Of a stretch of DNA of 29,912 bases, positions 3,857 to 28,093 are shown in pieces. A program made the position numbers and the translations under genes. Where the stretch lies: the IMG/VR virus record IMGVR_UViG_3300017746_000088, positions 1 through 29,912 of that record; one strand, given 5' to 3'. The notes under the pieces were generated by a model. It saw only the letters and a list, made by a program, of their open reading frames with translations, was not told the DNA's origin and made no database searches. Each line of letters opens with the position of its first letter. Positions within the stretch are counted from its first letter, which is position 1. The stretch comes from a virus.

Positions 3857-3885
3857 CAAATATATAACTTATTTTTGACATACAA
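3857..3885 (-). promoter_or_regulatory. Flavobacterial-type promoter of the ERF-SSB-helicase unit
   Basis: Minus strand: TTG (3885-3883), 18-base spacer, TATATTTG (3864-3857), an exact TAnnTTTG. The -33 TTG is partly built from the T-run of the terminator just upstream. The spacer begins TATGTCAAAAAT, close to that in the promoter at 28309-28338. Expected transcription start is about 15-20 bases before the ERF ATG (3834). Confidence 0.7.
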
Positions 3886-3914
3886 AAAAAAAGGGTAAGA
3901 AATTAATCTTACCC
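3884..3914 (-). terminator. Rho-independent terminator after the NinG-like gene
   Basis: Minus strand: 8-bp stem (GGGTAAGA with TCTTACCC on the plus strand, 3893-3900 and 3907-3914), 6-base loop, then nine T (3892-3884). It lies 32 bases beyond the NinG stop. Its T-run merges into the -33 element of the ERF promoter. Confidence 0.88.
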
Positions 3915-3946: not shown

Positions 3947-4333
3947 TTAAGAATATTTTTTGACTTCATTTGAATAATGTACTACCATTTCTTCTAATTC
4001 GTCTGATGTAAATTTACGTATTTTACGGCTTTCTTGTAATAGTTCTTCTGAAAGTTTTCCACCAAGATATAAACTAAACTTATATTGCTCCCCAGCCTTA
4101 AACATATTACACCCTACGCATTGAGGTTTAACATTTCTTTCATCCCATCTAGTAGAGTAATGTTTTCTACTCATAAAATGTCCTGCCTGAATCCCTCCGC
4201 TCTTCCAATGTCCAACCTTACCACAAGTAACACAAGTGCAGTTACCGTTCTTAGAGTTGCTTAGTCTTATATATTGACTAAAGATATTATCTAGTTTTTT
4301 TACAAGTTTACTTCTTGTTAGTTTTTTAGGCAT
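3947..4333 (-). CDS. ninG: NinG/Rap-like recombination nuclease
   Basis: 128 residues. CTCVTCGKVGHW (C34, C37), then GIQAGHFMSRKH (H52) and DERNVKPQCVGCN (C72, C75), are the zinc-binding and HNH-like motifs of the lambda NinG (Rap) family. These are structure-specific nucleases that act on recombination intermediates with the phage annealing system, here ERF. At 128 residues it is shorter than lambda NinG but contains the whole catalytic block. Its ATG overlaps the end of the preceding 78-residue gene by 8 bases. Confidence 0.8.
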   Translation of the reverse strand: MPKKLTRSKLVKKLDNIFSQYIRLSNSKNGNCTCVTCGKVGHWKSGGIQAGHFMSRKHYSTRWDERNVKPQCVGCNMFKAGEQYKFSLYLGGKLSEELLQESRKIRKFTSDELEEMVVHYSNEVKKYS

Positions 4334-4562
4334 CTAATGATTTTAGTAATAAATTACCAGATAATTCATCGATTCCTTTTATTTGCTTATAAATAAATTT
4401 AGAATTTTTTTTTACTTCTAATCTTTCTGCTTTTGAAGAATCGCTTCCTAGATTAGTATACATATTACAATCAAGTTTTAGTAATTTATCAGTTCTTTCT
4501 TGAATGCTTAATGCAAAATCTCTTGCATAATTTTCAGCTTTTACTTTTATATCTTCTTTCAT
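4326..4562 (-). CDS. Small charged protein of unknown function
   Basis: 78 residues, lysine- and glutamate-rich and probably mostly helical, with one Cys and no membrane segment. It is the first gene after the promoter at 4610-4640 and overlaps NinG, so the two are co-expressed and may work together. Family not recognised. Confidence 0.6.
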   Translation of the reverse strand: MKEDIKVKAENYARDFALSIQERTDKLLKLDCNMYTNLGSDSSKAERLEVKKNSKFIYKQIKGIDELSGNLLLKSLDA

Positions 4563-15598: not shown

Positions 15599-17176
15599 TT
15601 ATCCTATTGAAGCACTTTCTACAATGTTTCTATCTAGTGCTTGTGCATCACTTACTTCATTAGACACTACATAGGCTTTTACAGGCTGTTTCTCATCTTG
15701 CCCTATAGATTGTGCTAACTGGTTTGTTTCGCTCGCTCCTACGACGTTAAACGCAGGTGGTGATGATGGTACTGTTGCTCTTGATGGCGTAGAAATACTT
15801 GGACTAGCGCCTCCGCCTTTTCCTCCAGGTGTTTTAACAGACGTTATTTGTTTAACAGTTGCAATACCCGAAGCGATTGCTGCTGCCGCAGCTATACCTC
15901 CTAAAACAGGACCTACTATTGGAATACCAGCTAACGAACTAAATGCAGATTGTGCGCCTTTATAAGTCTCAATGGTTGTTTGTGCTATTGCTGCCGCCTT
16001 ACCCGCCGAACTACTCTCCCCTAAAAGCCCCGCAAGGTTGCCTAAAGTTTCAGAAGCAACTGATAATTTTTCGTTAGATGTAAGTTTGTCTATTTTTATC
16101 TCATCTTTTGCAGCCCTTTTCTTTAAATCCGAAGTTATATTCCCTGTTTTTATTATAGCTTCTTCCTGTTTACCTACACTTTTAATTAGTATCTCATCTA
16201 ATGTATCTCTTTGAGTTTGGAAATTATCAATCTCTGCTTGTCTTTGGTCTACTAAAGCCTTGTGTGCAGCCTTCTCTTCATTGATAGCACCTATAATTTG
16301 GCTAGTAACTTCTTTCTGTTTTGTTAATCTTGCAGTATCAAGGTTTATTAATTCCGCTTTTAACGTTGCTTCTTCTGCTAAATCTTCTGCAGAGCTTTCA
16401 CTTAAAGAGTTTTCTTGTTGTTTAATTTCAAGTCTAATCCTAGCGGCTTCAATTTCTTTATCTGTTATCTCTTCTTCAAGTCTACCAGCTTCTTTTAGGA
16501 AAGCAATTCTTTGTGTAGCGGTGTAGGTTTCTCTATCTGCTGCCTTCTCTAAAAGGTCTGCTCTTTTTCTATTTGCTTCTGCCCTATCTACCGTTAGTTG
16601 TCTTTCAATCTTAGTAAGCTCCGCTTGTTTATCTGCCAACTCCCCTTGTAGTGCTATTTCTTTTTTGGTTTCTTCTCCAAAGTTTTTCATTCTATTTGTA
16701 GCCTCTTCAAATGATTTGGCTGCATCATCAAGATTCCCACTTAAAAGAGAAAATACGCTTTGGCTTAAACTATAAAGTATATCAGTTACATTACCTGCAA
16801 CTACTCCTATTTGAGAAAGTACCTTATTAAGTTTGTTAGCACCTTCTTCACTATTACCAAAGTTAGCGGCTAATGCACCAACAGCTACAACAAACGCACC
16901 TATCCCAGTTGCAATAAAAGCAACCTTCATAGCCTTTAAACTTACGTTCCCTGTTCTAATGGCTTTGGTCATTTTCATAAAACCAGTATAACCACCGCCT
17001 GTAACTTTATCTATTGCAGTACCGAAAGCACCCATTTCTTTTTGAGTTTCCTTTGAGGTGTCACCAATATCTTCAACGCTTTTATCTACTTTTTGCAAAC
17101 CCTTATCTAGACCTTTTAAGTCTTTTTCGGCTTTGCCAGCATTTACTTCTATTTCAATAGTTTTTACAGTTGACAT
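15599..17176 (-). CDS. Tail tape measure protein
   Basis: 525 residues. The N-terminal half has long amphipathic helices (AEKDLKGLDKGLQKVDKSVE). A hydrophobic stretch at about 85-106 (VAFIATGIGAFVVAVGALAA) is followed by a long coiled coil at about 165-340 and a second hydrophobic block at 417-442 (GIPIVGPVLGGIAAAAAIAS). The end VKAYVVSNEVSDAQALDRNI is a close I have seen in tape measures of Bacteroidota phages. It sets tail length. By the usual 0.15 nm per residue this predicts a tail of roughly 80 nm, a rule-of-thumb estimate only. Confidence 0.8.
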   Translation of the reverse strand: MSTVKTIEIEVNAGKAEKDLKGLDKGLQKVDKSVEDIGDTSKETQKEMGAFGTAIDKVTGGGYTGFMKMTKAIRTGNVSLKAMKVAFIATGIGAFVVAVGALAANFGNSEEGANKLNKVLSQIGVVAGNVTDILYSLSQSVFSLLSGNLDDAAKSFEEATNRMKNFGEETKKEIALQGELADKQAELTKIERQLTVDRAEANRKRADLLEKAADRETYTATQRIAFLKEAGRLEEEITDKEIEAARIRLEIKQQENSLSESSAEDLAEEATLKAELINLDTARLTKQKEVTSQIIGAINEEKAAHKALVDQRQAEIDNFQTQRDTLDEILIKSVGKQEEAIIKTGNITSDLKKRAAKDEIKIDKLTSNEKLSVASETLGNLAGLLGESSSAGKAAAIAQTTIETYKGAQSAFSSLAGIPIVGPVLGGIAAAAAIASGIATVKQITSVKTPGGKGGGASPSISTPSRATVPSSPPAFNVVGASETNQLAQSIGQDEKQPVKAYVVSNEVSDAQALDRNIVESASIG

Positions 17177-20458: not shown

Positions 20459-21958
20459 TTAAATATTACCCCCGCCTGTGCTGCAATTCCAAATAAGAGA
20501 ATTTTGAACTATTCCAAAACTGTCTATTTGTATTGCGTAAAATTGGTATTGAGCATCTCCTGTTGTTTGGGTTGTTGTTATTACATACCATTTACCGCCT
20601 CCAAATACTGCTGTACTACCGTAGCACATTCTATTACCAAGTTGATAACGTGCAGCTGAAGCAGATGATGCATTCGTAGATACTTCATTGCTAGTCTGCC
20701 AATATCTACCAGCTTCCCTTTCCGAGCATATATCGTCTATTGAATTGTAGCCTTGACTCAAAAACACAGTTACAGTTCCGCAATCTAATTGTTTTGCAGG
20801 TTGCGTTATATCAACATCGCAGGTTATATTTGCACCTCCTGAATTACTAAACCCAGTTGCAGGTGGTTCTATTGTAAAGGTTATTGTTCTAGGTGTATCT
20901 AAGAGAACTTCTGGAAATGATTGAGGTGTCCAACTTATAAGCGTTCCTAGTGTTAAACTTGGCGCAGCAATGTTTCCACTATCCGATATAAAGGTTCCTG
21001 TAATTTGAGCATCAGCACAAGTAAAAGGTAGAAGTGTTGCGGTTGCAGGTTGTAAATATGTCACATTGCAATCAAAAGTCCCAGGATAGTTTGTATATCC
21101 AATGGGAATATTAAACCTATAAGTCAATACTATATTTCTATCTGAACCTGTATTGTTTGCACCCACATTTAAACTTGTAGTTATATCAGTAGAACCATAA
21201 AGAAGTTTGTTTAATTGAAGACCACCATTCCCCCAAGTGGATTTATGTACTTTTCCATTTTGTTCTATGTTTCCAGTTGTTTCGTCTATGTCTGCATCAT
21301 CACAATCAAAGGCAACGCATCCTGAAGTATTAAAAGAAAAACTATTTGAAACCGCAGAACAACTACCCGAAGTGTTTATTGCTTTAAATTGAAATACAGC
21401 ACTTACGCAAGGTGTAGAAGATTGTATCGTGCATACAGTACTAGACCCTGTACCTGAAATGACAGCCGTTACAGAACCGCTTCCACTTACCCTTGAAACT
21501 TGATAACTTGCAATAGACTCAGTACCTGCTGTAAAATAAGAATCCACATCTATTAACTGTTCTAGCGATGGGGCTATGTTTGAAAGGTTTGGTACTGTGC
21601 TTGAAAATATAGGGCAAGTAAGATTTATAGAAGGGTCTTCTTGTGCGGTCTGAAATGGCTGGTCGAACGTTTGAACACAATCAATAGTAGCATCGTTAGA
21701 GTTAGTGTAAGCCGAAGGTATCGCAATAGTATAAGTTACGCTTCTTGATATTGTGCTTGTTCCAGTATTTGCAGCAAAACTATAATCCGTCTGGTCTAAT
21801 ATAGAACCATTTCTAATGTTAGGGTTATTTATTACACCACTACTATCTACCGAGAAGTTTGTAAGTCCAGCAGTTGTACATGTAAAAATACCCAGCGCTT
21901 GAGTTGGTTCTGTAAATTGTAGAAAATATGGACTTCTAACGTTTATCTTTGTACTCAT
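20459..21958 (-). CDS. Repeat-containing beta-sandwich tail protein
   Basis: 499 residues, rich in Thr, Ser and Asn. Three related units are visible at about 72-102, 275-304 and 357-388. Each has a strand (TYTIAIP / TYRFNIP / TFTIEPP), then a TN or SNSGG turn, and a Cys-containing strand ending in QP or QPA. This suggests three Ig-like domains with a conserved cysteine. A non-repeated C-terminal domain (from about 392) has DDICSEREAGRYW and RMCYGSTAVFGGGKWYV. Probably a virion surface protein of the tail. It overlaps its upstream neighbour by one base. Confidence 0.6.
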   Translation of the reverse strand: MSTKINVRSPYFLQFTEPTQALGIFTCTTAGLTNFSVDSSGVINNPNIRNGSILDQTDYSFAANTGTSTISRSVTYTIAIPSAYTNSNDATIDCVQTFDQPFQTAQEDPSINLTCPIFSSTVPNLSNIAPSLEQLIDVDSYFTAGTESIASYQVSRVSGSGSVTAVISGTGSSTVCTIQSSTPCVSAVFQFKAINTSGSCSAVSNSFSFNTSGCVAFDCDDADIDETTGNIEQNGKVHKSTWGNGGLQLNKLLYGSTDITTSLNVGANNTGSDRNIVLTYRFNIPIGYTNYPGTFDCNVTYLQPATATLLPFTCADAQITGTFISDSGNIAAPSLTLGTLISWTPQSFPEVLLDTPRTITFTIEPPATGFSNSGGANITCDVDITQPAKQLDCGTVTVFLSQGYNSIDDICSEREAGRYWQTSNEVSTNASSASAARYQLGNRMCYGSTAVFGGGKWYVITTTQTTGDAQYQFYAIQIDSFGIVQNSLIWNCSTGGGNI

Positions 21959-22464
21959 TATTTTTTATTTAGTGTAAATTGTAAAAACTCTTCTACGTCT
22001 AATCCGTATGCTTCTAATAGTTCATCTGGTAGTTTCTTAAAACCTTGTTCAAATGGTTTAGTAAAAAATAAGCTAGGCTTTAAACCTTTCTTCTGTATGC
22101 TTCTTGCAATTAAGAAACCTAACGTTGTATATCCACCTTTTTGAAATCTACCCTTTGAGTCTCTTAATTTAAGACCCTTTGCTTTTGCCCAATCGGCTAA
22201 CGGTTTAATAGGTGGCATTTTACTTTTATAGCTATAAGGAGTATCGTACTTCTTTTCAGTTCCGCTTACACCTTTATCTTGAAAATTACCATAACCTAAA
22301 TCCCAGCTTAGTTTAAACGAATTAGGGCTAACCGTTAAAACACCATCCAACTTCTTATAGAGTCCCTTAGAAACGTTCTTTTTACCCTTGGTTAATCTAC
22401 TACGTGATTGTTGAGCAACAAACTTCCTGAACTTCTCTAAAGATTCTTTGGTGTTGGTTAGCAT
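21958..22464 (-). CDS. Tail completion protein (HK97 gp10-like, putative)
   Basis: 168 residues, strongly basic. GNFQDKGVSGTEKKYDTPYS followed by PPIKPLADWAKAKGLKLRD and GFLIARSIQKKGLKPSLFFT is the order seen in gp10-like tail/head-completion proteins: basic N-terminal helix, aromatic/FQ(D/E)xG motif, then RP.F-type end. It would close the head-tail junction. It overlaps the gene before it by 7 bases. Confidence 0.65.
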   Translation of the reverse strand: MLTNTKESLEKFRKFVAQQSRSRLTKGKKNVSKGLYKKLDGVLTVSPNSFKLSWDLGYGNFQDKGVSGTEKKYDTPYSYKSKMPPIKPLADWAKAKGLKLRDSKGRFQKGGYTTLGFLIARSIQKKGLKPSLFFTKPFEQGFKKLPDELLEAYGLDVEEFLQFTLNKK

Positions 22465-22913
22465 ACTGTCATATCGTTTTTAACTAATACGTCAAATGTT
22501 GCTGCCCATCCTGCTAACTTGTTTTCGAATCTATCTACAAACGGCTCACACCCTACAGCCCCATCAACTTGGAATAGGTCAGTATATAACTCTCCTCTTT
22601 GTAGTATTGATACAACCCTATTAATAACCTCTAACTGCGTGTTTAAAACATCCTGCTCATTATCATTACCTACAAATATATCTGTAACCTCATCCTTTGA
22701 TTCATCTACAATATCCATTGCTAGGATGCTAATGTTAAACGTCATTGTATTGGATGCTACATTGCAGTTGTTTACTATTATGTGAGATAAAGGAAAGATG
22801 GTCTGTTTATTTAAATCAACATCATCTAAGCTACCATAAGAAACCGTATTAACAAAAGGCTCTGCATTAAGTGCATCCTTTATTTTTTTCGTTACGTTGT
22901 AAAATCCTGTCAT
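22458..22913 (-). CDS. Tail terminator-like protein (putative)
   Basis: 151 residues. An N-terminal helix (NVTKKIKDALNAEPFVNTVS) is followed by strands (SHIIVNNCNVASNTMTFNIS, then ISILAMDIVD) and a helix, ending in strands with LAGWAATFDVLVKNDM. This helix-strand order and length match tail terminator proteins (lambda gpU type). The neighbouring gp10-like gene supports it. Its start overlaps the end of the frameshifted chaperone product by 4 bases. Confidence 0.5.
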   Translation of the reverse strand: MTGFYNVTKKIKDALNAEPFVNTVSYGSLDDVDLNKQTIFPLSHIIVNNCNVASNTMTFNISILAMDIVDESKDEVTDIFVGNDNEQDVLNTQLEVINRVVSILQRGELYTDLFQVDGAVGCEPFVDRFENKLAGWAATFDVLVKNDMTVC

Positions 22914-23652
22914 CTGTTCTTAATTAGTTTTGCTTCTAGTTGGTTCTTTTCTTTTTCAAATGCTAAAAACATAAAGCACTCGTGAAAGTTTAATTTAGTA
23001 ATATATTCAAATCGTCTAACATCTCCTTTAGAGAGTCCATAGAGTGATTGATACCACCCCCATTTTTTGCCAAAGTTTGTAGCTGCTCCGTAGTCAGTTC
23101 CTTCGGTATTTCCTGATTCAAATAACTCAGGGTAGTTTTCAGTAGTTCGTTGTTTAAATTGTAAAAAAAAAACATACAACCCATTACTACATCCAAAGGC
23201 ATTTGCTTCATTAGGTCAGCACGTTCTAAACCATCGTACTCTTCTATCTGGTATCTGTCTCCTTTTTGTAATGTGATAGGTCTATAAAGAACTGCCATAG
23301 CTTTGTGCATCATATCCCAATCAGTAAAGTTCTCGTCTAAATCAATATACTCTCCTAGTGTCATATCATCTAAGACAGGAACAAAACCGTACTCAACACC
23401 CTTCATTTTAAACGTAGGTATTAAGTCTTGCTTTAATTCAAAGAGTTTGTTTATGTCGTTTAGTATCTCTTGTACGTAGATGTATTTAATCTTAGCTATA
23501 TCCTTTAGATTAAGGTTGCAGAACAACTCAACAGTCTTATGCATTAAGAAGCTGCTCTCTTGATTCTCATCTGTATTTAACTTAGCAAACTTTTGGTATT
23601 GCTCTAGTGTTATTTCAGATAAACTACTTGGTATTTGTATTTCTACTTTCAT
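22910..23652 (-). CDS. Tail assembly chaperone, -1 frameshift fusion product (gpGT-like)
   Basis: A -1 slip at the T10 run (23172-23163) would join the first 163 codons of the chaperone to 84 codons in the -1 frame, ending in TGA at 22912-22910. The fusion is about 247 residues. The shifted frame reads GAATNFGKKWGWYQSLYGLS and FHECFMFLAFEKEKNQLEAK, which looks like a genuine conserved T domain rather than noise. No well-placed start codon with a proper context precedes it. Nearly all siphophages make their tail chaperone pair this way. Slippage is inferred from sequence. Confidence 0.7.
22990..23652 (-). CDS. Tail assembly chaperone, unshifted product
   Basis: 220 residues, MKVEIQIPSSLSEITLEQYQ at the start, an acidic helical protein. 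The body has GVEYGFVPVLDDMTLGEYID and then DLMKQMPLDVVMGCMFFFYN at the shift site. It is the short form of a gpG-like chaperone that coats the tape measure during tail assembly. Residues after the slip point (about 164-220) are still protein-like in this frame, so both frames appear to be in use over about 175 bases. It is the first gene after the terminator at 23694-23721. Confidence 0.7.
   Translation of the reverse strand: MKVEIQIPSSLSEITLEQYQKFAKLNTDENQESSFLMHKTVELFCNLNLKDIAKIKYIYVQEILNDINKLFELKQDLIPTFKMKGVEYGFVPVLDDMTLGEYIDLDENFTDWDMMHKAMAVLYRPITLQKGDRYQIEEYDGLERADLMKQMPLDVVMGCMFFFYNLNNELLKTTLSYLNQEIPKELTTEQLQTLAKNGGGINHSMDSLKEMLDDLNILLN
23162..23175 (-). promoter_or_regulatory. Programmed -1 ribosomal frameshift slippery site
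   Basis: Minus strand reads ATG TTT TTT TTT TAC in the zero frame: ten consecutive T at 23172-23163. Slippage by -1 on TTT-TTT keeps perfect pairing in both sites and enters the frame that reads TTA CAA TTT AAA. A weak stem (CCTGA/TCAGG) lies about 35 bases further on and is too distant to count as a standard stimulator. Confidence 0.65.
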
Positions 23653-23693
23653 ATATTATAACAATAATAAAACCTTTGTTTTGTATAAATAGA

Positions 23694-23721
23694 AAAGGGG
23701 CTACATCTCTGCAACCCCTTT
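23694..23721 (-). terminator. Rho-independent terminator before the tail module
   Basis: Minus strand: 7-bp stem AAAGGGG/CCCCTTT with a 14-base loop, followed by TCTATTTAT. It separates the small-gene group (24476-23781) from the tail module, which therefore needs a promoter that I could not find or read-through. Confidence 0.65.
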
Positions 23722-23764
23722 ACTAACTAATCTAAAACTATGAAAAAATGTTAGCACCTATTTA

Positions 23765-23782
23765 AAGGATATGCCAATCCTT
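23765..23782 (-). other. Short hairpin right after the 79-residue gene
   Basis: A 6-bp stem (AAGGAT/ATCCTT) with a 6-base loop starts in the TAA stop region. No T-run follows (TAAATAGG), so termination here is weak. It may protect the 3' end or simply precede the stronger hairpin at 23694-23721. Confidence 0.35.
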
Positions 23783-24020
23783 ATTTTAAATTGTTTTCGT
23801 AGACGTATCTATATATCTCATCTATCTTGTCTTCTAATTCTTTGCTGTTCTGTTCAAAGATTTCTTTTCCTTTGCTGTATGTTTTTTGAAAGTCTATTAT
23901 TAATCTTACTGGTTGACCTCCCTTTTTCCAACTGGATGATATTGGTTTTTGTATTACATATACATCGTTCTCCCAGCATATCTTTTTAACTTCCCAATCC
24001 TCTAGTACTTGAGTAGCCAT
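23781..24020 (-). CDS. Small phage protein, function unknown
   Basis: 79 residues from the ATG at 24020, MATQVLEDWEVKKICWENDV at the start. The frame is open from an earlier ATG (24059), but that would overlap the upstream gene by 58 bases instead of 19, so the later start is preferred. The protein ends in an acidic helix (EQNSKELEDKIDEIYRYVYE). A hairpin (23782-23765) follows the stop at once. Confidence 0.55.
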   Translation of the reverse strand: MATQVLEDWEVKKICWENDVYVIQKPISSSWKKGGQPVRLIIDFQKTYSKGKEIFEQNSKELEDKIDEIYRYVYENNLK

Positions 24021-24172
24021 AGGAATGCATTTAAGAAGACGTGAAGGCTTATAATGCAAACGCCTGTAAATATTAAACCTCTTTTTATTGTGCTTCTTAC
24101 AAGGCTTCTATTCTCTTCTGCTGTTAATCTTTTTACTAATTCGTATTCGTAACTTTCTTTTAAATCTTTCAT
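24002..24172 (-). CDS. Small single-pass membrane protein
   Basis: 56 residues. A charged N-terminal helix (EYELVKRLTAEENRSLVRST) is followed by a hydrophobic segment at about 33-54 (GLIFTGVCIISLHVFLNAFL). It would be anchored with its N-terminus inside. It is preceded by ACAAAAACAAACAAT, the recurring leader. Not recognised. Confidence 0.55.
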   Translation of the reverse strand: MKDLKESYEYELVKRLTAEENRSLVRSTIKRGLIFTGVCIISLHVFLNAFLWLLKY

Positions 24173-24200
24173 ATTGTTTGTTTTTGTAAATATATTAAAT

Positions 24201-24308
24201 TTAACTCATCCAAGCCCTATCGCATTCTTTGCTACAAAAATCTCCATCACAGGGATTAAGACATTCTAGGCATTGGTTTTCTTTTGGTTCGTTTGATGGG
24301 TCGTACAT
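24201..24308 (-). CDS. 35-residue zinc-binding-like protein
   Basis: MYDPSNEPKENQCLECLNPC opens it, with a CxxCxxxC and then CxxxC pattern (CLECLNPC...FCSKECDRAW). The FCSKEC-RAW close resembles short zinc ribbons such as DUF2116-like proteins. It probably binds one zinc and may act in nucleic acid or protein contacts. Preceded by TCAAACAAT. Confidence is limited by length. Confidence 0.55.
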   Translation of the reverse strand: MYDPSNEPKENQCLECLNPCDGDFCSKECDRAWMS

Positions 24309-24317
24309 ATTGTTTGA

Positions 24318-24476
24318 TTATAGTGTGTTTAAAAATAAACTTGATTGTAAGGCTTTTTTTGGCTCTTCGTTGAATTGTTGGTAAAACATAACGAAGGCAA
24401 ACATCATAGTATCTTTGTCTATTGTTTTGTAATCTATCCCTTTTGTAGCTTCTGTGTAAAATTCTTTGTAAGTCAT
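24318..24476 (-). CDS. Small helical protein of unknown function
   Basis: 52 residues, MTYKEFYTEATKGIDYKTID at the start, helical and soluble (DTMMFAFVMFYQQFNEEPKK follows). It is the first gene of the small operon driven by the promoter at 24500-24529, with an AAAAACAAACAAT leader directly before its ATG. Not recognised. Confidence 0.55.
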   Translation of the reverse strand: MTYKEFYTEATKGIDYKTIDKDTMMFAFVMFYQQFNEEPKKALQSSLFLNTL

Positions 24477-24499
24477 ATTGTTTGTTTTTAATTATACAC

Positions 24500-24529
24500 C
24501 AAATATAAAACCTTTTTTTGAATTAACAA
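24500..24529 (-). promoter_or_regulatory. Flavobacterial-type promoter after terminase
   Basis: Minus strand: TTG (24529-24527), 19-base spacer, TATATTTG (24507-24500), an exact TAnnTTTG. It lies in the 73-base gap between the terminase large subunit and the 52-residue gene, leaving a leader of about 15-20 bases. Confidence 0.7.
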
Positions 24530-24549
24530 AACTATTAACAAAAAAACTT

Positions 24550-25719
24550 TTAGTAGATAAAATATTGCCCCTTGTTTGGGTTCTCTAATGTATCGGTTAG
24601 AATGTACCGTGCAGCATCTATACAATCGGGATGTAGACCGCTTGGCTTCTGAGTCTTGTTGCCTTCTTTATCTGTTGCCCATATATAACCACCTAATTCT
24701 TTTTTAAGGTTCTTAGAACGGCTTGTAACGTATATCTCGTTTTGATTCATTAAGTTGATACCATATACAACTGAGTCTCTTCCTTTACTTACCCCGTGTA
24801 TGTTGTGACCATATCCCTGTAACTCTGCTATTGATTTAGGCTCTGCACTATCAGCTGTTATGTTTTCTCTTATATCGTGTGACTCTAAAAATCTGCTAAT
24901 ATCTCTATTGAGCATTCCCTTTTGATATAGTACCTCATCATATACATAAGCATCATTCCATTTATATAGTGCTATTAATGTTGTAGGGTCTACGCTGTAG
25001 CCAAAATCCATTCCGTAACCTAGTAACCTTGCTTCTTGTGGTACTGTATCTATTTCTTTCCAGTCTGGTATACAAGCACCCTCTAAGCTTCCTACCTCTC
25101 CAAGTCCATATACTCTCCACCAGTTAGCCCAATAAGTAGATGTCTTAGCCTTATCCTTTGCTTTCTCTATTTCCTTTACAATACTTTCAGGTAGTGAGTC
25201 ATTATCTTTATAGGTTAGTGTAATAAAGTCTGTATCGTCTTTCCCTATTAGTTCTTTGTCTACCCAAAATAAAGCAGATGGATTGTAGTCTAACCAGACG
25301 TTTCCCGATGTCCTTACTACTAACTGTTGGTATGCATCAAAAGGAATGTTGTTGCACTCATTAATATATAGGTCTGTTCTTCTTGCTCCTCTAAGTTTAT
25401 CTGGTTGGTCAGTTGAAAAGAACTCTATATAACTTCCGTTTGTAAAGGTGTATTTTAAGGTACTCTTATTTAGTTGGCTATCCTTATATCTATTCACGCC
25501 CTTAAGAAGCCCTAAGAAGTCTTTAAAAGCACCTCTACGTAGATGAGGTATTGATTCACTTACTACACTAATCTCCTTCCCTTTGTTTCGTATGGCGTAA
25601 TCAATAAGGATTAGCAGAATACAAATAGTCTTACCAGCAGATGTTCCACCTCTTACTATCTTTACCCTGCTATCTAATTCCTGTAACTTATCTAATGCTT
25701 GCGTTCTAGCTACCTGCAT
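24550..25719 (-). CDS. terL: Terminase large subunit
   Basis: 389 residues. Walker A GGTSAGKT (24-31), Walker B DLYINECN (116-123) and a coupling-like WLDYNP (142-147) form the ATPase. The RNase H-fold nuclease follows with GMDFGYSVDPTT (D238), ITADSAEP (D290) and LHPDCIDAARY (D365, D368). It packages DNA by docking on the portal and cuts concatemers. Residues around 104-114 (QPDKLRGARRTD) are typical of the phage TerL_6 group. The start follows the small subunit stop directly, with no spacing. Confidence 0.9.
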   Translation of the reverse strand: MQVARTQALDKLQELDSRVKIVRGGTSAGKTICILLILIDYAIRNKGKEISVVSESIPHLRRGAFKDFLGLLKGVNRYKDSQLNKSTLKYTFTNGSYIEFFSTDQPDKLRGARRTDLYINECNNIPFDAYQQLVVRTSGNVWLDYNPSALFWVDKELIGKDDTDFITLTYKDNDSLPESIVKEIEKAKDKAKTSTYWANWWRVYGLGEVGSLEGACIPDWKEIDTVPQEARLLGYGMDFGYSVDPTTLIALYKWNDAYVYDEVLYQKGMLNRDISRFLESHDIRENITADSAEPKSIAELQGYGHNIHGVSKGRDSVVYGINLMNQNEIYVTSRSKNLKKELGGYIWATDKEGNKTQKPSGLHPDCIDAARYILTDTLENPNKGQYFIY

Positions 25720-26669: not shown

Positions 26670-27329
26670 TTAAAATAATGTAATTTGTTTTTCGTTTTGT
26701 CTTTTCATAATACCTATTGCAGTTTCTAGTATTGTTTTACCAGCTTCATAGTCTACTAAGTTGCGGGCTATTTTATTTGTGGGTTGTCTTCCTTTGTATT
26801 TATAGAAATCGTAATCGTGAAACTCACATAGTTTTTTAACCTCGTTTGTACCACTAGATATTTTTGCTTGTTCTCTTTTAGACAATACACTTGGTAAATT
26901 AAAGTTTGTCCAGTACAAATGTCTATCTCTTTTTTTAGCAATAATCAATGGTTCATAATACGGTATTACGTTTTCAACTACATATTTACCCTTAAAACGT
27001 GCATCTTTTCCTTTTGAAACAGTTTCTAATAGTATTATTTCTTCATATAATTTCATATCAGGGTATTTTGTTTCTAAATTAGGATTCCAACCCCTTGCTC
27101 TACTATGTGTAGGGCAGGGGGGAGAACTCCATATAAAATCAAACTCTTTGTAATGGTCTAGTAAGTATTGATGTGCATCCCCTACTACTACCTTGTCATT
27201 AGGAAAACGCTCTTGATATAATCTTGCAAGTTCTTCATCCCATTCAACAGCTGTAACTTCTATATTAGTTACTTCATCCCATTTATATCGGTTACCTCCT
27301 AGACAAGCATATAAGTTTAGTATTTTCAT
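26670..27329 (-). CDS. C5-cytosine DNA methyltransferase, short form
   Basis: 219 residues, well below the usual 300 or more. Motif I LNLYACLGGN is at 4-13, the catalytic PPC (C72) with PPCPTHSRARGW at 70-81, and motif VI ENV at 119-121. RQPTNKIARNLVDYEAG (181-197) and ILETAIGIM form the end. The target recognition domain is very small. It could protect phage DNA from host restriction or modify origin or packaging sites. It starts at the stop of the ParB-like gene (overlap of one base). Confidence 0.8.
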   Translation of the reverse strand: MKILNLYACLGGNRYKWDEVTNIEVTAVEWDEELARLYQERFPNDKVVVGDAHQYLLDHYKEFDFIWSSPPCPTHSRARGWNPNLETKYPDMKLYEEIILLETVSKGKDARFKGKYVVENVIPYYEPLIIAKKRDRHLYWTNFNLPSVLSKREQAKISSGTNEVKKLCEFHDYDFYKYKGRQPTNKIARNLVDYEAGKTILETAIGIMKRQNEKQITLF

Positions 27330-28093
27330 TATTTATTTTTATTTTTTCTCTTGTAGTATTGATTTAAATACAACTCCATTAACGGTCTAAAATCCGAAAT
27401 AGACGCAATAGCTAGGTTATTTTTTATTGCCATTTTTTCATATTTCTTAAAGAGATGTTTCATTGCCTTTCTATCTTTTTGGCATTTTCGGTAACCTATT
27501 TGTATCATCTCCCTTACACAATAAGCTGCTATTTTTCTTTTACCAAATTCTTTATTTAAGTAAGAGAAATTTTCTAACATAAATTTTGCAAAATCTATAT
27601 CTTTTATTTTACAATTACCTTCTTTAAATTCTTTAACTCCAGCACTTGATAAACCAAAAAAACAATTTACAATATTACCTACCGATATGTTATTGCTGTT
27701 GGCTTTATAAATATCGTACACTGTTTTGTAATCTTCATTGTAGTCAACATATTCTTTTAAATAGTTTAAGGTATTCCAAGAAAGGTTACCATTGTTTAAA
27801 CTTATTATACTATCTAAATGTTCTTTAGCGTTGTCCGTGTCTACCCAATCAACTATATAAGCAGGTACAGTTTTTTGATTTAATAATATAGCTGTCTTTA
27901 CTCTATGGTGTCCTTCCATTAAATCTCCTTTATCAGAAATAGTTACTGGTATCATCCAATGATGTTTTAACAATTTTTTAGAGAAATTCTCTGAATGTGA
28001 TTCTACTAAGTCTCTATTTACTTTAGCGAATTTTATCTCGCTAATTGGATAGAATGCCTGAAACGTTCCTACTTTGATGTTTGTGTTTGTCAT
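27329..28093 (-). CDS. ParB-box (ParB/sulfiredoxin N-domain) protein
   Basis: 254 residues. YPISEIKFAKVNRDLV leads into the box GDLMEGHHRVKTAILLNQKT (GHHR at 61-64), the catalytic/nucleotide-binding motif of ParB N-terminal domains. The rest is helical and basic with no recognised DNA-binding motif. Phage ParB-box proteins often sit beside methyltransferases and terminases; some act as CTP-dependent clamps, some as nucleases. Here it directly precedes a C5 methyltransferase. The start is preceded by TAAAAACAATTATT. Confidence 0.7.
   Translation of the reverse strand: MTNTNIKVGTFQAFYPISEIKFAKVNRDLVESHSENFSKKLLKHHWMIPVTISDKGDLMEGHHRVKTAILLNQKTVPAYIVDWVDTDNAKEHLDSIISLNNGNLSWNTLNYLKEYVDYNEDYKTVYDIYKANSNNISVGNIVNCFFGLSSAGVKEFKEGNCKIKDIDFAKFMLENFSYLNKEFGKRKIAAYCVREMIQIGYRKCQKDRKAMKHLFKKYEKMAIKNNLAIASISDFRPLMELYLNQYYKRKNKNK

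What the first reader, a model, noticed from the sequence alone, without database searches (positions are those of the whole stretch)
23162..23175. T10 slippery run with probable -1 programmed frameshift in the tail chaperone gene
Ten T in a row in the zero frame (ATG TTT TTT TTT TAC) lie where the -1 frame opens into a conserved-looking domain (GAATNFGKKWGWYQSLYGLS and on) ending just after the zero frame. Both frames remain protein-like over about 175 bases. Frameshifted chaperone pairs are established for siphophages, but a pure T10 site is unusual compared with GGGAAAG-type sites and allows several slip registers. The predicted products are 220 and about 247 residues.
Basis: partly seen in the sequence, partly recalled or inferred. 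Interest (0 to 1): 0.75.

Follow-up and report, generated by a model that had tools for sequence, protein, structure and literature searches.

The report
Poly-T recoding site in phage tail gene
A run of ten T's in a flavobacterial phage tail gene lets one gene make two proteins by changing reading frame. Hundreds of related phages keep at least nine T's there, which suggests that the RNA-copying enzyme, rather than only the ribosome, does the slipping.

Summary
On the minus strand, T10 (23163-23172) sits in frame (ATG TTT TTT TTT TAC) in a 220-codon ORF. The -1 frame opens there into an 84-residue domain, giving a 247-residue fusion. It is not a sequencing error: 222 unique sites from related phages (including the isolates Nonlabens P12024S/L at ~30% identity) have a T run and a -1 domain. 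In the overlap both frames are under purifying selection (N/S-like ratios 0.52 and 0.39; controls ~2).

The pair behaves like the siphophage tail assembly chaperones G/GT. It lies in a tail module upstream of a tape-measure-like gene. No known chaperone family matches by sequence, so the function is inferred.

The run is never shorter than 9 T, although the slippery heptamer T_TTT_TTT would survive in runs of 7-8. Both Phe codons are always TTT. Where the 5' T is lost (4 lineages), the run is extended 3'. T>=9 runs are avoided elsewhere in these phages, and no downstream RNA structure is seen. Nine T is the known threshold for RNA polymerase slippage, so transcriptional slippage (+1 U) is favoured (about 0.6) over ribosomal -1 slippage (about 0.35). 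An RNA experiment must decide.

The parts
22990..23652 (-). Zero-frame ORF (gpG-like), 220 aa, ATG start
   Evidence: relatives; phrog_32199 (unknown function)
23163..23172 (-). T10 run, the recoding site: zero frame ATG TTT TTT TTT TAC
   Evidence: run of at least 9 T in 222 unique relatives
23164..23170 (-). In-phase slippery heptamer T_TTT_TTT inside the run
   Evidence: sequence
22910..23164 (-). -1 frame extension (T-like domain), 84 aa LQFKQR...KWGWYQS...LIKNR plus stop; the fusion has 247 aa
   Evidence: near-invariant KWGWY; purifying selection
22990..23162 (-). Dual-coding overlap of the two frames after the run
   Evidence: N/S-like ratio G frame 0.52 [0.41-0.63], T frame 0.39 [0.31-0.47]
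23154..23156 (-). Stop (TAA) in the third frame, 3rd codon after the run; catches mRNAs that lost one U or gained two
   Evidence: sequence; third-frame stop within 3 codons in 205 of 220 relatives
22458..22913 (-). Next gene (151 aa, phrog_30964); its ATG overlaps the stop of the -1 frame (ATGA)
21958..22464 (-). 168 aa, phrog_29822; the P12024L homologue weakly resembles a tail completion/Neck1 protein
15599..17176 (-). Tape-measure-like protein, 525 aa, downstream in the same direction
   Evidence: phrog_3336 E 1.5e-18, phrog_9483 E 1.3e-17
24550..25719 (-). Terminase large subunit, upstream
   Evidence: phrog_2 E 4e-38
23694..23721 (-). Terminator-like hairpin just upstream of the zero-frame gene
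   Evidence: 1 found, 0.7 expected by shuffling; weak

Best explanation
The gene encodes a tail assembly chaperone-like pair. Ordinary expression gives G (220 aa). A minority product, GT (247 aa), carries the -1 frame KWGWY domain. The frame change happens at the poly-T run, most probably by transcriptional slippage: RNA polymerase stutters on T10 and some mRNAs carry U11, which ordinary translation reads into the -1 frame. mRNAs with U9 or U12 run into a stop three codons later. By analogy with phage lambda, G would coat the tape measure protein and GT would recruit the tail tube protein. Shown: the two frames, their conservation and selection, and the conserved run of at least 9. Inferred: the polymerase as the slipping machine, and the chaperone function.
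For: Frames and fusion. The relation holds in 222 unique sites, in 103/74/31 lineages at 90/75/60% T-domain identity, and in isolates P12024S/L. Dual coding. No separate start for the T frame: 116 of 220 have no ATG/GTG/TTG between the upstream stop and nine codons past the run. Slippage by RNA polymerase: (1) run length 9, 10 or 12, never 7-8, though T_TTT_TTT would survive in such runs. (2) Both Phe codons always TTT, while TTC makes 22% of other Phe codons in G and 9-50% at five other invariant or near-invariant Phe columns; U_UUU_UUC is also a good E. coli ribosomal motif (PMC4066793). (3) Four lineages (L249/L250, L251, L253, L266) have a non-T at codon 1 position 2, and all four have codon 4 starting TT, keeping the run at 9 or more; Fisher p 1e-4 to 1e-3 by clustering. 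(4) Phages of 50-57% GC keep T9/T10. (5) Sense T>=9 runs are avoided in their other ORFs: 2 seen, 16.6 expected. (6) No downstream structure. (7) Nine is the slippage length in many bacterial genomes (PMC1088944; PMC5009743). Tail module.
Against: Any T run of 9 or more contains the in-phase ribosomal heptamer, so ribosomal slippage is never excluded by sequence. The 5'/3' compensation rests on four lineages. W/Y/F/L/S at codon 4 might be kept for protein reasons alone. Avoidance of T runs may reflect replication slippage. Lambda-type chaperone shifts need no stimulator either, so absence of structure is neutral. Slippage by flavobacterial RNA polymerase was not tested. No sequence match to known chaperones; the major tail protein was not identified and the gene is not directly beside the tape measure gene.
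Confidence: 0.57

Rival explanations
1. The same G/GT pair, but produced by ribosomal -1 slippage on T_TTT_TTT (two Phe-tRNAs re-pair), as in other siphophages.
For: The heptamer is in phase and intact in every one of 222 sites. U_UUU_UUU is a shift-prone motif in E. coli (PMC4066793). Chaperone shifts in tailed phages work at low efficiency without stimulators (PMC5009743), consistent with no structure here.
Against: Runs of 7-8 T and TTC at the last codon would serve the ribosome but are never seen; run length is restored at the 3' end when a 5' T is lost.
Confidence: 0.35
2. Two separately translated genes: the T ORF starts on its own (TTG or ATG) by coupling inside G, without any frame change.
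For: TTG occurs in the T frame in this window (23179). Annotators of P12024L called a separate ORF P12024L_41 from an internal ATG.
Against: 116 of 220 relatives have no ATG/GTG/TTG in the relevant stretch, and 195 have no ATG/GTG. The P12024L_41 start would drop the N-terminal part of the conserved domain. It would not explain the invariant T9.
Confidence: 0.04
3. Sequencing error or decaying gene: one ORF broken by a homopolymer miscall.
For: Homopolymers are error-prone; L258 and L061 each show an apparent one-base error.
Against: The same phase in 222 unique sites from many samples and two isolates; both frames under purifying selection beyond the run.
Confidence: 0.01
4. The frame change is real, but the pair is not a tail chaperone; it is another phage assembly protein placed after the terminase.
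For: Directly downstream of the terminase gene; no family match; no PDB fold match.
Against: Tail-module neighbours with a tape-measure-like gene downstream; size and layout of G/GT; a weak fold match to a protein named tail assembly chaperone.
Confidence: 0.12

Closest known systems
Phage lambda gpG/gpGT tail assembly chaperones (and the wider G/GT class of Xu, Hendrix and Duda)
   Same: Short zero-frame protein plus a -1 frame C-terminal domain; tail gene cluster upstream of the tape measure gene; no RNA stimulator found.
   Different: Pure T9-T12 run instead of a G_GGA_AAG-type heptamer; a long dual-coding tail of G (53-62 codons in most) rather than a stop soon after the site; no sequence relation; placed right after the terminase gene.
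Programmed transcriptional realignment, e.g. Thermus thermophilus dnaX (A9), Shigella mxiE/spa13, IS elements (Baranov 2005)
   Same: Homopolymer of nine or more conserved across relatives; run length rather than codon register conserved; a nearby stop in the third frame.
   Different: Here in a tailed-phage chaperone gene; no RNA data; the papers found in the library searched report no chaperone expressed this way.
Nonlabens phages P12024S and P12024L (genus Inhavirus)
   Same: Same synteny and site (CTT TTT TTT TAT) at about 30% identity; ORFs P12024L_40 and _41 (phrog_32199 and phrog_38404).
   Different: Zero frame stops 24 codons after the run; the fusion is not annotated.

Membership tests
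Siphophage tail assembly chaperone pair G/GT | Second ORF in a shifted frame overlapping the 3' end of the first, with a conserved slip site | tested here: met
Siphophage tail assembly chaperone pair G/GT | Placed between the major tail protein and tape measure genes | tested here: inconclusive
   Upstream of a tape-measure-like gene, but about 6 kb away, directly after the terminase; the major tail protein was not identified
Siphophage tail assembly chaperone pair G/GT | Match to a known chaperone family or fold (not strictly defining; known ones have low sequence similarity) | tested here: not met
   No Pfam/PHROG/NCBIfam chaperone match; PDB fold search no match; one BFVD match so named, E 0.049
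Siphophage tail assembly chaperone pair G/GT | Both products made in a fixed ratio, bind the tape measure protein, absent from the virion | not testable with these tools
   needs proteomics and binding assays
Ribosomal -1 programmed frameshift | In-phase X_XXY_YYZ heptamer | tested here: met
   T_TTT_TTT in all sites
Ribosomal -1 programmed frameshift | Conservation limited to the heptamer, with allowed variants such as U_UUU_UUC | tested here: not met
   The run exceeds the heptamer in all; no TTC
Ribosomal -1 programmed frameshift | 3' structure or upstream Shine-Dalgarno-like stimulator (optional) | tested here: not met
   No consensus fold, single-sequence z about 0; pseudoknots and SD-like pairing not tested
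Programmed transcriptional realignment | A/T homopolymer of about nine or more, kept across relatives | tested here: met
Programmed transcriptional realignment | mRNAs heterogeneous in run length | not testable with these tools
   no RNA reads available

The most novel reading that the evidence does not exclude
A whole clade of Bacteroidota tailed phages makes its tail chaperone fusion by RNA polymerase slippage on a pure T run, so the G:GT ratio is set during transcription and tuned by run length (9, 10 or 12) instead of by the ribosome.
Probability: 0.55. Interest if true: 0.75.

Novelty: new variant of a known kind. Interest (0 to 1): 0.6.

Why it matters
Tail chaperone frame shifts are a textbook case of ribosomal recoding. 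A clade that keeps a homopolymer of at least nine T, restores its length when one end is lost, and avoids such runs elsewhere would show that the same protein ratio can be set at transcription instead. It would also give a large natural series of run lengths for studying slippage by flavobacterial RNA polymerase, and it corrects the annotation of a widespread gene family now listed as two unknown ORFs.

Tried and rejected
Sequencing error: rejected by 222 unique sites and two isolates. Independent start of the T ORF: rejected for at least 116 of 220. Downstream stem-loop: RNAalifold and shuffles on six windows gave nothing. Fold of the T domain: mean pLDDT 60, pTM 0.35, too poor to search. Fold of G (pLDDT 80, pTM 0.75): no PDB match. 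PDB sequence profiles: nothing for either part. Flavobacterium phage 6H protein AGN89393 (fold match E 1.5e-4 but TM 0.32) was looked at as a better-placed homologue; it has a TTTTTTC site and unclear frames, so it was not used as evidence. Rfam and tRNA scans of the window: nothing.

Full report
Observation. On the minus strand the window has T10 at 23163-23172, inside a 220-codon ORF at 22990-23652. Read in the -1 frame from the run, the sequence stays open to 22910 and encodes 84 residues, LQFKQRTTENYPELFESGNTEGTDYGAATNFGKKWGWYQSLYGLSKGDVRRFEYITKLNFHECFMFLAFEKEKNQLEAKLIKNR. The fusion would have 163 + 84 = 247 residues. The stop of the -1 frame overlaps the ATG of the next gene (ATGA, 22910-22913).

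Context. The window is an IMG/VR virus record of 29912 bases, 35% GC. In the direction of transcription it runs: terminase large subunit (24550-25719), the pair described here, phrog_30964, phrog_29822, three large unknown genes, a tape-measure-like gene (15599-17176), a gene with head-maturation-protease-like matches, a capsid-like gene and a portal gene. The only isolates found with relatives are the Nonlabens phages P12024S and P12024L (29-30% identity), with the same order and a tape-measure-like P12024L_50. Three relatives lie in Bacteroidota genome bins, so the hosts are probably flavobacteria.

The frame relation is conserved. Relatives were gathered by homology to either part, not by the T run. 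Among 223 unique sites, 222 have a T run of 9 (172), 10 (47) or 12 (3) with the T domain in the -1 frame; the exception is cut by its contig end. L061 is a chimera with one base lost upstream, and L258, at a contig end, is out of frame by one base; both were left out of the later counts that need intact frames, and L258 out. The lineages number 103, 74 and 31 at 90, 75 and 60% T-domain identity. In 61 representatives below 88% nucleotide identity the nine T positions are invariant. P12024L has CTT TTT TTT TAT in the same place, and its GenBank entry lists two separate hypothetical ORFs.

Both frames are selected. In 71 independent pairs of close relatives, substitutions in the overlap were sorted by their effect in each frame and compared with all possible changes. 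The N/S-like ratio, conditioned on the other frame, is 0.52 [0.41-0.63] for the zero frame and 0.39 [0.31-0.47] for the -1 frame. Controls behave as expected: upstream of the run the -1 frame gives 1.99, and past the end of G the zero frame gives 1.93 (first version). The confidence limits are bootstraps over pairs; transition bias was set to 3. The T frame lacks ATG, GTG and TTG near the site in 116 of 220 relatives, so a separate start cannot be the rule.

How the frame changes. Two machines can slip on T10. The ribosome needs T_TTT_TTT in phase; RNA polymerase needs a long run. Every run of 9 or more contains the heptamer, so sequence alone cannot exclude the ribosome. But the heptamer also survives in runs of 7 and 8, and these never occur. 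Both Phe codons are always TTT, while TTC makes up 22% of other Phe codons in G and 9-50% at five other invariant or near-invariant Phe columns; in E. coli U_UUU_UUC is among the good ribosomal motifs (PMC4066793). Codon 4 changes between W, Y, S, F and L, yet always starts with T. In four lineages with codon 1 AAT, GCT or ACT (L249/L250, L251, L253, L266), codon 4 starts TT and the total stays at 9 or more; against the other lineages Fisher's p is 1e-4 (90% clusters) to 1e-3 (60% clusters). Phages of 50-57% GC keep the run (L241-L243, L251). In the other ORFs of these phages sense T>=9 runs are rarer than synonymous shuffling predicts (2 against 16.6; T8 or more 6 against 43.8). Published work puts the slippage length at nine A or T in many bacterial genomes (PMC1088944) and reports efficient slippage at nine in vivo (PMC5009743). 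No downstream or upstream structure was found, which is neutral because tailed-phage chaperone shifts can do without (PMC5009743). A third-frame stop lies within three codons of the run in 205 of 220; it would end products of mRNAs that lose one U, though it may be a by-product of the conserved TTTAA. I put transcriptional slippage at about 0.6 and ribosomal slippage at about 0.35; both may contribute.

What the protein does. Layout, size and tail-module position fit the G/GT tail assembly chaperones, for which low sequence similarity is normal (PMC5009743). No Pfam, PHROG or NCBIfam chaperone model matches. The G model is fair (pLDDT 80, pTM 0.75); it matches many unnamed phage proteins and, weakly (E 0.049), one named tail assembly chaperone, but nothing in the PDB. 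In this prediction the run lies inside a long helix (153-181). The chaperone role is therefore inferred, at about 0.85 in my judgement.

Literature. Searches for chaperone frameshifting together with transcriptional slippage or realignment found no chaperone reported to use slippage. The library holds open-licence papers only; the key survey PMC3199440 is not held, so priority is not certain.

Verdict. A new variant of a known kind.

Noticed in passing
L328 23946-24640 (P12024L genome): P12024L_40 and P12024L_41 are annotated as two separate hypothetical proteins; by this analysis they are one gene with a frame transition at T9.
   Followed up: yes
L258 run near its contig start: DNA has T10 where the two frames would need one base more or fewer; probably an assembly error at the contig end, otherwise a natural run-length variant.
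   Followed up: partly
L061 about 2400-2670: N-terminal part 93% like this window, C-terminal part from another subfamily, with one base lost near the join: a recombinant or a chimeric assembly.
   Followed up: partly
L240 (Flavobacterium phage 6H) 10000-10927: A fold-similar protein (AGN89393) upstream of the annotated tail protein is followed by about 300 unannotated bases whose frames look like one protein broken twice; possibly another recoded chaperone or a sequencing error.
   Followed up: partly
window 4405-4413 and 3884-3892: The only other 9-base A/T runs in the window: T9 on the + strand inside the minus-strand ORF 4326-4562 (A9 in sense), and A9 on the + strand between ORFs.
   Followed up: no
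window 26670-28093: Two adjacent ORFs, both with DNA methyltransferase-like matches (the second weak), abutting at 27329; could be one split methyltransferase.
   Followed up: no
window 23653-24549: About 900 bases of small ORFs and a terminator-like hairpin separate the terminase from the G gene here, whereas in P12024L the two genes abut; the G gene may head its own transcript.
   Followed up: partly
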